In this document: piece by piece, positions 1 to 7,508 of the stretch
How positions within the stretch are numbered: the stretch's first letter is position 1
How the letters are laid out: each line of letters begins with the position of its first letter
Virus record (IMG/VR): IMGVR_UViG_3300030090_002565
Coordinates: 1 to 24,863 of that record
Direction: 5' to 3' (one strand)
DNA length: 24,863 bases
Origin: a virus
Translations under genes and position numbers: made by a program
The notes under the pieces: model-generated
What the model was told of the DNA's origin: nothing
Databases searched by the model: none
What the model saw: the letters and a program-made list of their open reading frames with translations, nothing else

Positions 1-9
1 CATTTTATT

Positions 10-81
10 TGGCTCGCTCCGCAGTCTTGTTTCTATCTCGCCGTCTGGCTCGCTCGCCGCTTTTGTTTCTATCGCGCCACG
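10..81. repeat. Two tandem copies of an imperfect 36-bp repeat
   Basis: Copy 1 is 10-45 and copy 2 is 46-81; they agree at about 27 of 36 positions. Both begin TGGCTCGCTC and share the block TTGTTTCTATC. A third copy begins at 82 (TGGCT), then runs into the stop codon of the IS110-like gene. The repeat lies just downstream of that gene, so it would be in its 3' untranslated RNA on the minus strand. The window edge hides whether more copies follow on the left. Function unknown. Confidence 0.7.
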
Positions 82-85
82 TGGC

Positions 86-907
86 TTAAAAAGGCGGCTC
101 TATCTTGTGTGCATGACCTCCATGCTCTAAGACAAAAGGGTTCGGCGGATTCTTTCCAAACTCATGCTTGTACCATACCTCATGCAGATGCGAGAGAAAT
201 AGTTTTACCGCGTAGCGTGTAGACCTAGCCTGTATGTGCGCTGGCGGTAACTTCCCCTTTATGTACGCCTTGTATGCATCTGTGGTTTTCTTGATGTTCT
301 TCTTCTCCAAAGCAGACTTTGCCTGATCTGCAAACTCCCCATTGTCATTGCGTTTAATTTCTAGCTCCTTACGCTCTTTGTATATTTTACCGTAAAAAGC
401 CTTTTTGTTACCTGACACCTTGACAAAACTTTCCCCTAATTTCCAACACAGCACTTTTAGTTCTGCATTGAATGGTCGCTTGGTTCCCTTTTTCCATTCA
501 GCAGTAGGATCAAGTCCGGCAAACCGCCAGATGGCTCCAGCCGTAGGTGCTCTTGTGATATCAATATGTGCAACCAACCCTGATGCAATCACCTCCCCGA
601 TTCCAACTACCGTTCTGATCCGACTTCCAATCGGGTGTGCATTGGAGTACACATTCAATGCGGCTTTTACATTTTTCTCCAGTACCGTTGACTGAGTGGA
701 CAGCCAGTATAGAATATCGTGTGGCTCATCCTTCATCTGCCGAATCTGATTGTTAGACCGAATCCTGTTACCCTGCATCTGATAATACGAATCTACCAGA
801 AACCTAGCCTCGTCATCTGTCATGGTAGTCGCGGCATTTCGCAAGTCTTTATCCAGAGTTTCTACTGATGACCTGATCTCTTCTACTGTGATCTCTTCGT
901 TAAACAT
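86..907 (-). CDS. IS110/IS116/IS902 transposase-like protein, C-terminal domain only
   Basis: The 273-aa protein matches the C-terminal (Transposase_20) half of IS110-family transposases. It has a helix-hairpin-helix segment at about residues 98-116 (GIGEVIASGLVAHID), the block FAGLDPT at 129-135, a basic turn KKGTKRPFN at 139-147, and a C-terminal helix at about 228-246 resembling the last helix of the family. The N-terminal DEDD RuvC-like nuclease domain is absent; residues 1-90 look helical instead. The SSG-type serine motif that normally follows the GL.P block is replaced by AEWKKG, so the serine thought to be catalytic in IS110 enzymes appears missing. I recall similar stand-alone proteins in other phages. 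It is more likely a DNA- or RNA-binding protein than an active transposase. SD AGAAGGAA precedes the ATG. The preceding 240-nt gap is unusually structured. Confidence 0.75.
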   Translation of the reverse strand: MFNEEITVEEIRSSVETLDKDLRNAATTMTDDEARFLVDSYYQMQGNRIRSNNQIRQMKDEPHDILYWLSTQSTVLEKNVKAALNVYSNAHPIGSRIRTVVGIGEVIASGLVAHIDITRAPTAGAIWRFAGLDPTAEWKKGTKRPFNAELKVLCWKLGESFVKVSGNKKAFYGKIYKERKELEIKRNDNGEFADQAKSALEKKNIKKTTDAYKAYIKGKLPPAHIQARSTRYAVKLFLSHLHEVWYKHEFGKNPPNPFVLEHGGHAHKIEPPF

Positions 908-942
908 AATTCTTTTCCTTCTTCTTTAAAATAATTATTAGT

Positions 943-1121
943 GTGGACTTCCCATTCTTTAGCCATGTTAGCGTTACCTAGCGCGGCTGACCTTTGCATA
1001 ACTTTTGGAACCATGAATTTTCGGGGGCAATTCCAAAGTTATGAGAATGGGTAAGTATTGCGTAGTCCACGACACAATTTAAGGAGTCGCTAATTTCAGA
1101 CGCTTTAGACAACTGAAATTA
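943..1121 (-). ncRNA. Candidate structured RNA upstream of the IS110-like gene
   Basis: This gap in the leftward operon can form nested and successive helices. (a) TAATTTCAG at 1091-1099 pairs perfectly with 1113-1121. (b) GTGGACT at 943-949 pairs with 1064-1070; as an alternative, 947-958 pairs with 1044-1056 over 12 bp with one bulge. (c) 997-1010 pairs with 1031-1043 (13 bp, one extra T), stacked directly on helix b. (d) A small hairpin AGCC/GGCT (961-964/985-988) contains GCG/CGC. The region has no ORF. It could be a cis-acting leader or a trans-acting RNA. IS110-family bridge RNAs also come from the non-coding flank of the transposase gene, but no guide loops have been shown here. Confidence 0.45.
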
Positions 1122-1148
1122 ACTGGAAATCCGCACTACCCCACAAAT

Positions 1149-3511: not shown

Positions 3512-4873
3512 TCAATCTAAGTGAAGTACCTGCCCAACCTTCGGGTTGAACTCCTTATAGCCATCAGGACAAACTGCCCAAAGCAGTGGGTATTCTAAAG
3601 AATCCCATACGGCTTCAGATAGTCCGCCTACATATGCGTCTGTCAATAATAGCATACATTCTACATCAGAATCTAGTAGGATATTATTTTCTACATACTC
3701 CACAACACAATGGGGATCAGTACCGCCTCCTCCTTTAGGCTTCGTAGTATCAGTCAACGTGTTGTAGTCATCCTCAGTGTAGATCTCATGCGCGACTACA
3801 TCAGTACCCCAATATAAGAGATGCACTTTCTCCGGCACTACATCCTCCACTATTACTTTCACCTCCGAGAGGAAACGGTCAATATCTTCCTGACAGATTG
3901 ACCCAGAAGTATCAACACCAATCACAATACTTCCTATTGCTTCTCCTTCTGAAGAAGGTGCATATATTCCAGACCCTAACAACCTTCTGTTAAATCTCCG
4001 AAAGGTAGATATGTCTTCCCCTTTGCAGGTGTTTTGTATGAACTCTGCTAGTACCTCTTCCCACGGAGTTTTCACTTCGATCAACTCTCTAATCGTTGCG
4101 GCAAAAACCCCTGCGGCATCCCCTGCTACCTGCGCGGCCTGACGGACAGCCCGATCTAACTCTTCAGCCATCTCCTGTAATTCCTCTGCGCTTTTCTCTT
4201 TCTCAGAATCCCAGTTATGATCATCGAACATCTTCTCTTTCAGTTCTTCGATCTCATCGGAATACTGTTTCTCTTCTTTAGAATTATTAGAAGGATTATT
4301 TACCGGGGGAATATCTTTAGGATCATGATCATTCCCGTCATTCCCGTCACCACTTCCTCCCTTTGGTGGTCGTGGTATTGGTGGCGGAGGGTTGTTCTTC
4401 TGCTTGAGAATATTGAACACCTGCACTGTATTCTTATCTCGATAGGCTTCATCAACTAACGCCATAGGCTCCCCCTTCTTTGGCCCTTCTTTGAAAGTAG
4501 GCATTTTGAAATACTTTTCCCCTGTTGCCTTTGCAAGATCCACCAACTGAAGATTGATCACATAGTCCATCGCCATGTTCGCCAGAAGTGGATCTTCTTT
4601 AACTAGATGTATCCAGACAAATACATGCTTGTAGGCTTTGTGCATTTGCTCATGGAGTACAATGAATAACAGTTCTTTGTTATCCAGTTCCTGACAAAAG
4701 TCTGGGTTGTAGTAAGTATTGATCCCATCGGTTGCCGCTGTCGCAGTTTTATCAGTGCCAATATCATTCTCTCCGTAGAGACTGATTGCCCCAAAGAATC
4801 TCAACTCTTTCACTTCCATCAGTTTAACGTGTGCTCGTTCGAGCCTTTGTTGTGGTGTGAATTGTTGTTCCAT
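3512..4873 (-). CDS. VWA-like zincin metallopeptidase-type protein (DUF2201-like), MoxR partner
   Basis: The 453-aa protein has the two-part layout of DUF2201/VMAP-type proteins. The N-terminal zincin-like domain carries HEQMH at 74-78 with a downstream ANMAMDYVIN segment (98-107) that could supply another ligand. A low-complexity Pro/Gly/Asp linker lies at about 160-195, with a charged coiled region at 200-250. The C-terminal von Willebrand A-like domain keeps a MIDAS: DTSGS at 321-325, the Thr of GGGGTD at 385, and D412 in TDAY. Such proteins pair with MoxR AAA+ ATPases as metal-dependent chaperone or remodelling systems, and a MoxR gene lies three genes upstream in the same operon. The target is unknown. 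SD GGGGAAGGA precedes the ATG. Confidence 0.85.
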   Translation of the reverse strand: MEQQFTPQQRLERAHVKLMEVKELRFFGAISLYGENDIGTDKTATAATDGINTYYNPDFCQELDNKELLFIVLHEQMHKAYKHVFVWIHLVKEDPLLANMAMDYVINLQLVDLAKATGEKYFKMPTFKEGPKKGEPMALVDEAYRDKNTVQVFNILKQKNNPPPPIPRPPKGGSGDGNDGNDHDPKDIPPVNNPSNNSKEEKQYSDEIEELKEKMFDDHNWDSEKEKSAEELQEMAEELDRAVRQAAQVAGDAAGVFAATIRELIEVKTPWEEVLAEFIQNTCKGEDISTFRRFNRRLLGSGIYAPSSEGEAIGSIVIGVDTSGSICQEDIDRFLSEVKVIVEDVVPEKVHLLYWGTDVVAHEIYTEDDYNTLTDTTKPKGGGGTDPHCVVEYVENNILLDSDVECMLLLTDAYVGGLSEAVWDSLEYPLLWAVCPDGYKEFNPKVGQVLHLD

Positions 4874-4884
4874 TATCCTTCCCC

Positions 4885-5292
4885 TTAGTAAGTTGCGTCC
4901 GTGTAGTTTTGAACACCCCAGTTGCTTGAAACCTTTTCGCGTAATGCGTTTTTCATATCGACAAAGAGACTCTCGCCTTTGTGATTGAAGGCGAATGTCA
5001 CGCCGACTAAGTACCGCATATTTTCGCGTCCAATTTCCTCAACTATGAGCACTTCGCCTTCACAGAGATGTTTGCCGATTTCTTTGGATGCGTCGTAAAG
5101 TTCAAGGAGATCATCAGTCTCTTCATCGTAGCGATTCGGTGAAGCGCCATCGGGGTGTTCACAAATAAACCCAATGCGCTCCTCGTTGTCGTAAATTGGT
5201 TTGCATTCGAACGATAGTAGAAACTCTACGAACTCGTCCTTGTCTTTTACGTGTACATAGTTGCTGCGAACGTCACAGATATAGTTAGCCAT
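4885..5292 (-). CDS. Conserved hypothetical protein in the MoxR-VWA cluster, 135 aa
   Basis: The protein begins MANYICDVRSNYVHVKDKDE; this N-terminal pattern (MANY...R.NY..VKD) is one I associate with small proteins near phage and plasmid MoxR-type clusters, but I cannot name a function. It is acidic and soluble (strand-rich start, EETDDLLELYD in the middle). SD AAGAAGGAGAAG sits in the shared leader. Only 11 nt separate its stop from the VWA gene start. It uses GCG, CGC and TCG codons visibly more often than its neighbours, which may reflect a different origin or selection; this is an impression, not a computed value. Confidence 0.75.
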   Translation of the reverse strand: MANYICDVRSNYVHVKDKDEFVEFLLSFECKPIYDNEERIGFICEHPDGASPNRYDEETDDLLELYDASKEIGKHLCEGEVLIVEEIGRENMRYLVGVTFAFNHKGESLFVDMKNALREKVSSNWGVQNYTDATY

Positions 5293-5334
5293 TATTCTTC
5301 TCCTTCTTTAAAATAAATTCAGTGTTGCCACCAC

Positions 5335-6333
5335 TTAGAAATTAAACTTACTTGTAATTTGATCTACCGACTCTTTTACTTTGTTAACTTCTTCTACCAT
5401 AAGACCTCGATAGTATTCCCCATGATCTTTATCCTTCAGATCATCTACATCATAGTCTTCCAGAATCGCTTGGAATTCCTTACGCCTCTGCTCCAACTCA
5501 GGATCTTGTGTGATATTAAAAGCCTTCAGCGCACTACAGATATCTAGCCCACTCTCTAGCAAGTCATTTGATATTTTCTTCTTCTTTGTTACCTCCCTGC
5601 CGTAATCTTTACCTTTCCCTGTTCTTTGGAATTTATCCAAGGCTTTTGCATCTGCCTCCCTCTGCATAGCCGCAACTTCTTCATCAGTTCGATCAGTTAG
5701 CTGTTCGGATATCCTTGCCACAATGCGCGACAAACGATTCCATGTATCTGTCGTAGCTGTCCTTATCTTGTTATCTAACCCCTGCTGAAACAGATCGTTT
5801 AATTCCTCCTTTACATCTTCCAAGACACCATTAATAAACCCACCTTCTTCCGGCACTGGGGGATACTCCAGATTGAACTGAAACTTTCGCTCGATGAAAT
5901 ACTCTATCTCCTCATCCGAAGGGTAATCCATCGGGTTATACAACTCCCCCATATTCTCCTCTGCCTTCTCTCTCAACTCAGGTAATTCCTCCTTGAACAC
6001 CTGCACCATAGAGAGAAACTCTTCCTTCAATTCCCCCATTGTCTCCATGTGTTCCTGAATAAACGAATTCGGCACTAACCGCTGACCGCTATCATTCCAA
6101 GGGAGTGATAACTTGGCGTGTTCCTGTCTCGCTCTAGCCGCAAATTTCACAATCTCCCCCAAGACCTCCGACCCTGCAAAGATGTTCTTGGTCACTCTGG
6201 CAACATTGCTCTCGGCATTGTTATCTTCGTTCACCTTTGCAGTCGCATCTTTGTCCTGCTTTGATCCGGTAGATACCGAAATGTTTAACTCACATAACCG
6301 CGCACAACTTGCTATTGATATACTACTGTTCAT
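5335..6333 (-). CDS. DUF3150-like protein of a MoxR-VWA module, 332 aa
   Basis: The N-terminus (CARLCELNISVSTGSKQDKD) resembles the opening of DUF3150-type phage and plasmid proteins, where a leucine-rich strand is followed by a TGRK-like turn. Around residues 95-110 it has LSLPWNDSGQRLVPN, also typical of that group. Most of the rest is predicted helical and acidic, including EEIEYFIERKF, and a Lys-rich GREVTKKKK segment occurs before the last third. No membrane segment. It lies between the AAA+ ATPase and the VWA protein, the position expected for the third component of such modules. The role is probably adaptor or substrate handling; this is inference. SD AAAGAAGGAAG lies in the shared leader. 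Confidence 0.65.
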   Translation of the reverse strand: MNSSISIASCARLCELNISVSTGSKQDKDATAKVNEDNNAESNVARVTKNIFAGSEVLGEIVKFAARARQEHAKLSLPWNDSGQRLVPNSFIQEHMETMGELKEEFLSMVQVFKEELPELREKAEENMGELYNPMDYPSDEEIEYFIERKFQFNLEYPPVPEEGGFINGVLEDVKEELNDLFQQGLDNKIRTATTDTWNRLSRIVARISEQLTDRTDEEVAAMQREADAKALDKFQRTGKGKDYGREVTKKKKISNDLLESGLDICSALKAFNITQDPELEQRRKEFQAILEDYDVDDLKDKDHGEYYRGLMVEEVNKVKESVDQITSKFNF

Positions 6334-6393
6334 TTTTAATCTTCCTTCTTTAAAATATTTACTTTATTAGGTACGTTTTAAGACCACTGTTTG

Positions 6394-6413
6394 CCTGTGA
6401 CACCTGTCACAGG
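6394..6413. promoter_or_regulatory. 20-bp palindrome copy 2
   Basis: Identical to the copy at 3488-3507, same orientation (CC centre). It lies in the 92-nt gap between the MoxR gene stop (6426) and the DUF3150-like gene start (6333). The following bases GCTGTTTA are also shared with the copy at 7722. Confidence 0.7.
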
Positions 6414-6425
6414 CTGTTTACTGAA

Positions 6426-7508
6426 TTAACTATCTAGTCCGTAGAGATGTTTGTTCGCAACTGCCCAGTCCCCAAAGGCTTTGTGACTCTGGACTAACTT
6501 GTTCAGTTTGCGATTATCCTTGGACTGCAATAACCACAAGGCTTGGTTCTCGGTTGACAACCGTTTCATGTAGGTAAACCACGCATCCAGTTTGGGCTTA
6601 CTATCAACCCATGTTAATGCGGATACTGTGGTTATACATACTGCTGGCGGTGACTCCGGCACTATGGCATTTTCTGGATCTTCTATAATGTCATCCGGTG
6701 AAGGTAGTTCTTCCACCAAGTCAATGAATGTCATTAGCTGTGCGCCACCTGCTAACCCTATTGCTCCTTCCAGAGAAGACCGTAAGTTTCGTTTCTCTAT
6801 CCGTCCATTGAAGTAGTCCCATATACAATGTGAAGCCATCTCCAGAGATCGTGGTGTTACACATTGTTGTGTGTTTCTTTTGGGATTAGAGATATAAGGA
6901 TTCTGACCGTCAGGGTCATCGACGAATGACTGCATCAACTGTGGTTCACGCTTCACCCAAGCCATTACGGTTGGGTGGATGCCATTCTGTGAAGCCCACA
7001 AGATCCACTCGTCTGCCGTAGGCTTGCGGATATATTTCGTAATAACTCGGTTGGCTGTATGGTTCTGTAACCGATCACCTACACCCTCGACCGTAAGATT
7101 GCCTGTTGTTATTACTATAGAATCAGGATGGATATTGATCGATCCAATCCTGCGCGGATGCGTCAATAATCCATGAAACATAGCCTGTACTACTTTTGGA
7201 GCCTTGGTTAACTCGTCTATCACGATGAACAATGGCTCATCCAGATGGAATCCCCAATGCCTATTGAATAGAAACTCAGCACAGCCTTTCTCTACGTTAG
7301 GCATCATAATGCCTATATCCGCAATATCTATCTGGGTGCAGTCAATGAAGACAAACCGCATCCCCAACTTGTCTGCACCGGAACTTGCTACGGATGTTTT
7401 ACCAACACCCATCTCCCCCATCCAATGCCATGTTATTTTCCCTGCACTGGCAACCGCATCATCCATCGCCTCATTCAAACTCACATATGTTCTTGCTTGC
7501 ATACTCAT
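6426..7508 (-). CDS. MoxR-type AAA+ ATPase
   Basis: The 360-aa protein carries a canonical Walker A, GEMGVGKT (31-38), a Walker B with LFIVIDE (93-99), a sensor-1 segment ITTGN (133-137), and candidate arginine fingers at R146 and R154 in GDRLQ/NRV. The order and spacing fit single-domain MoxR-family AAA+ proteins, with a helical lid in the C-terminal third. MoxR ATPases work with VWA proteins to remodel or activate protein complexes; here the partner is the VWA/zincin protein at 3512-4873. The start overlaps the zinc-ribbon gene's stop as ATGA, and the SD GGGGGAT lies upstream. In a phage this could serve host takeover or virion maturation, but no target is visible. Confidence 0.85.
   Translation of the reverse strand: MSMQARTYVSLNEAMDDAVASAGKITWHWMGEMGVGKTSVASSGADKLGMRFVFIDCTQIDIADIGIMMPNVEKGCAEFLFNRHWGFHLDEPLFIVIDELTKAPKVVQAMFHGLLTHPRRIGSINIHPDSIVITTGNLTVEGVGDRLQNHTANRVITKYIRKPTADEWILWASQNGIHPTVMAWVKREPQLMQSFVDDPDGQNPYISNPKRNTQQCVTPRSLEMASHCIWDYFNGRIEKRNLRSSLEGAIGLAGGAQLMTFIDLVEELPSPDDIIEDPENAIVPESPPAVCITTVSALTWVDSKPKLDAWFTYMKRLSTENQALWLLQSKDNRKLNKLVQSHKAFGDWAVANKHLYGLDS

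What the first reader, a model, noticed from the sequence alone, without database searches (positions are those of the whole stretch)
86..1148. IS110-like C-terminal domain paired with a multi-helix upstream RNA candidate
The gene encodes only the Transposase_20-type half of an IS110 enzyme, lacks the DEDD nuclease and apparently the catalytic Ser region, and is preceded by about 240 non-coding nucleotides with several long helices. In IS110 elements the bridge RNA comes from the non-coding flank of the transposase gene. A phage-retained, nuclease-less IS110 domain with its own structured leader could be an RNA-guided or RNA-regulated DNA-binding system. No guide loops are shown; a simple cis-leader is the main alternative.
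Basis: partly seen in the sequence, partly recalled or inferred. Interest (0 to 1): 0.8.

Follow-up and report, generated by a model that had tools for sequence, protein, structure and literature searches.

The report
Phage TIGR-TasA RNA-guided DNA-binding system
This phage carries a nuclease-less TIGR-Tas system, in which a small protein related to IS110 transposases is guided to DNA by short RNAs from an array just downstream of its gene; the system type was described in 2025, and the folded stretch upstream that drew attention is not its guide RNA.

Summary
Its closest solved relatives are TasR and TasH of the TIGR-Tas systems, ahead of IS621. A TIGR dual-repeat array begins at its stop codon (1-85, -): truncated edge GCCA, then loop GATAGAAACA and edge GAGCGAGCCA alternating with 8-nt spacers, 36-nt period. 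It runs off the contig end; a sister phage (L001) shows 26 repeats. The same architecture is recognised in 47 of 51 phage contigs (none in shuffled DNA), with covarying repeat pairs. So this is a TIGR-TasA system, a known kind (Faure et al. 2025, PMC12045711). The 240-nt upstream helices are real but modest (sense z -2.1), occur only in L001 and are absent beside an 89%-identical homologue: not the guide RNA. No tigRNA target lies in the phages themselves. In a related prophage with a sequenced host (Acidobacteriaceae KBS 96), one of six tigRNAs matches 16/16, gap 0, an early regulator gene of a separate capsid-encoding integrated element (0.01-0.06 expected by chance): a candidate natural target for TasA, whose targets and role are described as open.

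The parts
86..907 (-). tasA: solo Nop-domain (IS110 C-terminal-like) protein, 273 aa, no nuclease domain
   Evidence: Pfam Transposase_20; PDB profile hits TasR 9mty E 1.1e-21, TasH 21kl E 1.2e-13, IS621 only E 1.8e-4; AlphaFold2 pLDDT 87.5 and Foldseek top 11 all TasH/TasR; 23 synonymous vs 1 nonsynonymous difference from the sister phage
82..85 (-). 5'-truncated edge repeat GCCA directly after the tasA stop codon = start of the TIGR array
   Evidence: same arrangement (GTCA) in L001
74..81 (-). spacer A of tigRNA 1 (CGTGGCGC)
64..73 (-). loop repeat GATAGAAACA
   Evidence: consensus in L001
56..63 (-). spacer B of tigRNA 1 (AAAGCGGC)
46..55 (-). edge repeat GAGCGAGCCA
38..45 (-). spacer A of tigRNA 2 (GACGGCGA)
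28..37 (-). loop repeat GATAGAAACA
20..27 (-). spacer B of tigRNA 2 (AGACTGCG)
10..19 (-). edge repeat GAGCGAGCCA
1..9 (-). spacer A of tigRNA 3 (AATAAAAT) and first base of the next loop repeat; the array is cut by the contig end
   Evidence: window starts at base 1 of the 26411-base record; L001 continues to 26 repeats
908..1148 (-). structured intergenic gap upstream of tasA (several hairpins); probably a lineage-specific regulatory or DNA-palindrome element, not the guide RNA
   Evidence: z -2.10 sense, -3.41 antisense; only L001 has it; no Rfam match; no promoter or terminator consensus in the gap

Best explanation
The locus is a phage-borne TIGR-TasA system. The array downstream of tasA is presumably co-transcribed with the gene and processed into 36-nt tigRNAs, each edge-half / spacer A (8 nt) / loop / spacer B (8 nt) / edge-half. 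A TasA dimer would hold one tigRNA through the box-C/D-like ends of the loop and edge repeats, and the two spacers would pair with opposite strands of a contiguous 16-bp target. Without a nuclease, TasA would act by occupying and bending DNA. The most likely use is RNA-guided silencing of competing mobile elements (repressor or roadblock). Shown here: protein kinship and fold, array anatomy, covarying repeats, purifying selection on tasA beside rapidly changing spacers, no self-targeting. Inferred from the published TasR/TasH/TasA work: transcription, processing, DNA binding, bending. Suggested only: silencing of competitors, from one exact target in a relative. The confidence given is for TIGR-TasA identity; for the silencing role I would say 0.45.
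For: Profile search of solved structures: TasR 9mty 1.1e-21, TasH 21kl 1.2e-13, IS621 1.8e-4. Foldseek ranks 1-11 are TasH/TasR, TMq 0.49-0.64; IS621/ISCro4 follow. Array of 10-nt repeats and 8-nt spacers starting with a truncated edge at the stop codon, full in L001. A simple repeat rule finds 151 arrays in 47 of 51 tasA phage contigs, 0 in shuffled contigs. Edge repeats covary at positions 3-8 (GC/TA/AT) and 4-7 (CG/TA/TG); loop repeats pair only at 3-8; the last base matches between edge and loop in 40 of 41 contigs. These are the published TIGR features. tasA: 23 synonymous, 1 nonsynonymous change between sister phages whose spacers differ from the first unit on. No self-target above control. 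KBS 96 tigRNA 2: exact 16/16 gap-0 target in an HTH_17 early gene of a separate capsid-encoding element.
Against: No expression or binding data. The window array is cut after two full units. No terminator follows the L001 array. The silencing role rests on one exact match (expected 0.014 at gap 0 by composition, about 0.04-0.06 over gaps 0-2) in a relative 58% identical. Two Halomonas tigRNAs gave no exact target. The other KBS 96 tigRNAs gave no exact hit, and their two-mismatch hits are at background level.
Confidence: 0.95

Rival explanations
1. The structured upstream gap (908-1148) is the guide or bridge RNA of an IS110-like RNA-guided DNA binder.
For: IS110 elements encode the bridge RNA in a non-coding flank (established); the gap folds better than most shuffles.
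Against: Absent beside the 89%-identical homologues, and an exact 19-base probe finds it in only one near-identical IMG/VR contig; most relatives have no sizeable upstream gap; guide units of a known type lie downstream.
Confidence: 0.02
2. The upstream gap is a cis element of this phage lineage: a structured 5' leader, or an operator or palindrome controlling tasA and the array, or a palindromic insertion. This is compatible with the best explanation.
For: It lies directly upstream of tasA in a same-strand gene run; it is kept at 99% in L001; L004 has a different hairpin directly upstream of tasA and L008 a strongly folding gap, z -5.6.
Against: No sequence kin, so no covariation can be tested; no promoter or terminator consensus.
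Confidence: 0.7
3. TasA with its array serves the phage's own genome (integration, packaging or replication), binding sites in its own DNA.
For: Faure et al. suggest the DNA bend could help integrases.
Against: No tigRNA target in the phages' own contigs above re-paired-spacer control (815 tigRNAs); spacers turn over quickly between close relatives, unlike fixed own sites.
Confidence: 0.07
4. It is a decayed IS110 transposase fragment.
For: Only the C-terminal half is present; databases call it transposase.
Against: At least 80 relatives of about the same size with 39 invariant residues in a 39-sequence alignment, purifying selection, and nearly always the same kind of array.
Confidence: 0.01

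Closest known systems
TIGR-TasA (dual-repeat TIGR arrays, e.g. Flavonifractor plautii FpTasA), Faure et al. 2025, PMC12045711
   Same: Solo Nop-domain protein without nuclease; adjacent array of alternating 10-nt edge and loop repeats with short spacers, 36-nt period; truncated first edge; covarying box-C/D-like ends; phage context
   Different: 8-nt rather than 9-nt spacers (16 nt total, as in SpTIGR); box D reads GA and box C CA/CG here; no terminator seen after the L001 array
TasH of Salicola phage CGphi29 and TasR (PDB 21kl, 9w04, 9mty)
   Same: Nop domain and coiled coil; best sequence and fold matches; CGphi29 also appears in the phage search
   Different: Those carry HNH or RuvC nuclease domains, absent here
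IS110 family transposases (IS621, ISCro4)
   Same: C-terminal Transposase_20/Nop-like domain, RNA-guided ancestry
   Different: No DEDD RuvC domain, no serine at the catalytic position (by inference), no bridge RNA; element ends not looked for
Type IV and V-M CRISPR systems (functional analogy made in PMC12045711)
   Same: Mobile-element-borne, possibly silencing rivals without cutting
   Different: Unrelated protein, dual split guides, no PAM, no adaptation genes

Membership tests
TIGR-TasA | Nop/IS110-C-terminal-domain protein without a nuclease domain | tested here: met
   273 aa; Transposase_20 only; fold matches the Nop part of TasH/TasR
TIGR-TasA | Nearer to solved Tas proteins than to IS110 transposases | tested here: met
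   1.1e-21 and 1.2e-13 against 1.8e-4; Foldseek ranks
TIGR-TasA | Adjacent dual-repeat array, two alternating 8-12-nt repeats, 8-12-nt spacers, about 36-nt unit | tested here: met
TIGR-TasA | Edge and loop repeats share box C/D-like ends; edge has an extra covarying pair | tested here: met
   984 edge and 1002 loop repeats over 41 contigs
TIGR-TasA | Array starts with a truncated edge repeat | tested here: met
   GCCA after the TAA; GTCA in L001
[quoted passage not shown]
   Window array is cut; L001 ends with a full edge and no terminator match
TIGR-TasA | 36-nt tigRNAs bound by the protein; tandem opposite-strand DNA targeting | not testable with these tools
   Needs RNA pulldown and binding assay
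IS110 transposase | N-terminal DEDD RuvC domain | tested here: not met
   No such domain; protein starts at the Nop/coiled-coil part
IS110 transposase | Catalytic serine in the C-terminal domain (Ser241 in IS621, own knowledge) | tested here: not met
   IS621 P238-R239 aligns with P134-T135; ungapped extension puts Glu137 at 241, a variable column; inference over two residues
IS110 transposase | Bridge RNA in the non-coding flank | tested here: not met
   Upstream gap lineage-specific; no guide loops identified
IS110 transposase | Element ends and insertion at a core dinucleotide | not tested
   Not looked for once the array was found
TIGR stem-loop array | Repeated palindromic units with box C/D motifs and two spacers | tested here: not met
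   The upstream palindromes are not repeated units and lack kin; a dual-repeat array is present instead

The most novel reading that the evidence does not exclude
TIGR-TasA arrays of phages are guides for silencing rival mobile elements inside the host: in KBS 96 a tasA prophage holds a tigRNA exactly matching codons 9-14 of an excisionase-like (HTH_17) gene in the early operon of a separate capsid-encoding satellite or prophage. This would be a natural target and a function for nuclease-less TasA.
Probability: 0.45. Interest if true: 0.85.

Novelty: new member of a known kind. Interest (0 to 1): 0.45.

Why it matters
The locus adds a clear phage TIGR-TasA and about 80 relatives, most with parsed arrays (8-nt spacers, covarying repeats). 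Faure et al. state that genuine spacer targets are hard to identify and that the role of nuclease-less TasA is unclear. Using relatives inside sequenced hosts gives a directly testable candidate target: a tasA prophage pointing at the early genes of another integrated element in the same chromosome.

Tried and rejected
Upstream gap as guide RNA: rejected, no homologue beyond one near-identical phage, no Rfam match. IS110 relic: rejected. Self-targeting: 815 tigRNAs against their own contigs, no excess over re-paired spacers. Targets among 51 tasA phage contigs, two geometries and gaps -4 to 12: no excess. Spacer A/B resemblance within units: none. IMG/VR scans with two G001 tigRNAs: 45 and 26 hits, no clear target. 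KBS 96 target 16-mer in IMG/VR: 33 hits, many from one unrelated AT-rich prophage family, none homologous to the KBS 96 site. Halomonas tigRNAs 1 and 2: no exact host target. Propionivibrio: three two-mismatch sites in 32 kb, one in housekeeping xerD, judged weak.

Full report
What was claimed.

The protein. The ORF is real: 273 aa, minus strand. Pfam gives a partial Transposase_20 match only. Against solved structures the single sequence hits TasR (9mty, 2.3e-11) and TasH (21kl, 5.1e-09) with IS621 at 0.73. A 39-member profile keeps that order: 1.1e-21, 1.2e-13 and 1.8e-4. An AlphaFold2 model from the family alignment (pLDDT 87.5, pTM 0.84) matches eleven TasH/TasR chains before any IS110 chain. 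PHROGs and Pfam call the family transposase; that label is misleading.

The array. The repeat finder showed two 36-nt tandem copies at 10-81, just downstream of the gene. Read on the minus strand from the stop codon: TAA GCCA | CGTGGCGC | GATAGAAACA | AAAGCGGC | GAGCGAGCCA | GACGGCGA | GATAGAAACA | AGACTGCG | GAGCGAGCCA | AATAAAAT | G. This is a dual-repeat TIGR array: truncated edge, spacer A, loop, spacer B, edge, as described by Faure et al. 2025 (PMC12045711). Window base 1 is base 1 of the 26411-base record, so the array is cut off. The sister phage L001 shows the continuation, 26 repeats.

The family. One scan of IMG/VR returned 80 relatives, about 49-100% identical. In 47 of 51 tasA phage contigs a simple rule (GA..G...C[AG] every 16-20 nt, at least five in a row) finds 151 arrays; shuffled contigs give none. 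Over 984 edge and 1002 loop repeats, edges covary at 3-8 and 4-7, loops pair only at 3-8, and the final A/G agrees between edge and loop in 40 of 41 contigs. Faure et al. describe the same logic: covarying box C/D ends and an extra pair in the edge. Relatives also occur in bacterial genome bins, one archaeal bin, and isolates such as Halomonas sp. NO4 and Acidobacteriaceae KBS 96.

Selection and turnover. tasA of the window and of L001 differ by 24 bases, 23 of them synonymous, yet the spacers differ from the first unit on. Other contigs with about 98% identical tasA share 1-4 units of dozens (G009/G010/G012), although G013/G014 (98.7%) share all 14 comparable units; pairs with 100% identical tasA differ by single inserted or deleted units. 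So the protein is conserved while the guides can change quickly.

The upstream gap. It folds moderately better than shuffles on the sense strand (z -2.10) and better on the antisense strand (z -3.41), as expected of DNA palindromes. It is found only in L001 (99.2%). L002/L003, 89% identical in TasA, lack it. Among 78 relatives, 28 have an array upstream instead, and of the other 50 only seven have a gap of 120 nt or more. It cannot be the guide RNA of the family. Hairpins of unrelated sequence stand before tasA in L004 and L008, so local regulation is plausible but untested.

Targets. The published geometry (opposite strands, contiguous, 0-2 nt gap, 8-nt 3' overhangs) implies a target reading SA + rc(SB) on one strand; this order is my deduction. 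815 distinct tigRNAs showed no excess of matches in their own phage or in the other phages over re-paired spacers. KBS 96 offers a host genome: one of its six tigRNAs (TAAAAGCA/TTCGATTC) has an exact, gap-0 site in the 6.69-Mb contig. The site lies in codons 9-14 of an HTH_17/excisionase-like gene in the early operon of a separate element with integrase, Xre-like repressor, a weak replication O-like match, HK97-type capsid and prohead protease. Expected exact gap-0 hits for all six tigRNAs: 0.014 by base composition; over gaps 0-2 about 0.04-0.06. A second tigRNA has a two-mismatch, gap-0 site 0.9 kb away in the replication-type gene, but two-mismatch hits overall are at background. I treat this as a candidate, not a demonstration.

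Verdict. A TIGR-TasA system: RNA-guided, nuclease-less, phage-borne; a new member of a known kind. The part worth pursuing is the target: possible silencing of rival integrated elements.

Noticed in passing
L324:9962-9977 (G051:C1:6329962-6329977, Acidobacteriaceae KBS 96): Exact 16/16 gap-0 match to tigRNA 2 of the tasA prophage array, at the start of an HTH_17/excisionase-like gene of a capsid-encoding integrated element; tigRNA 5 has a two-mismatch site at L324:9052 in the same element.
   Followed up: partly
L236:9747-9954: Propionivibrio array: units GAAATAAC/CACTGGTA and GAAGTAAC/CACTGGTA look like a duplicated unit with one changed base, a hint on how arrays grow.
   Followed up: no
contigs G025 (array starts 39688, 44390, 50516) and G045 (12087, 16642): TIGR arrays lie many kilobases away from tasA in the same phage contig, so arrays can sit apart from the gene.
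   Followed up: no
L001:1725-1755 and window 907-937: The 31 bases at the tasA start recur (90%) at the start of the gene that follows the array in L001, perhaps a shared translation or regulatory leader.
   Followed up: no
window 3512-7508: A DUF2201 metallopeptidase/VWA protein (3512-4873) and an AAA ATPase (6426-7508) on the same strand, with 5335-6333 between them: an ATPase-VWA set of unknown role in this phage.
   Followed up: no
L062 and L065 (contigs G043 and G044): The tasA match in each holds one in-frame TGA in the search output: possible recoding or a damaged gene.
   Followed up: no
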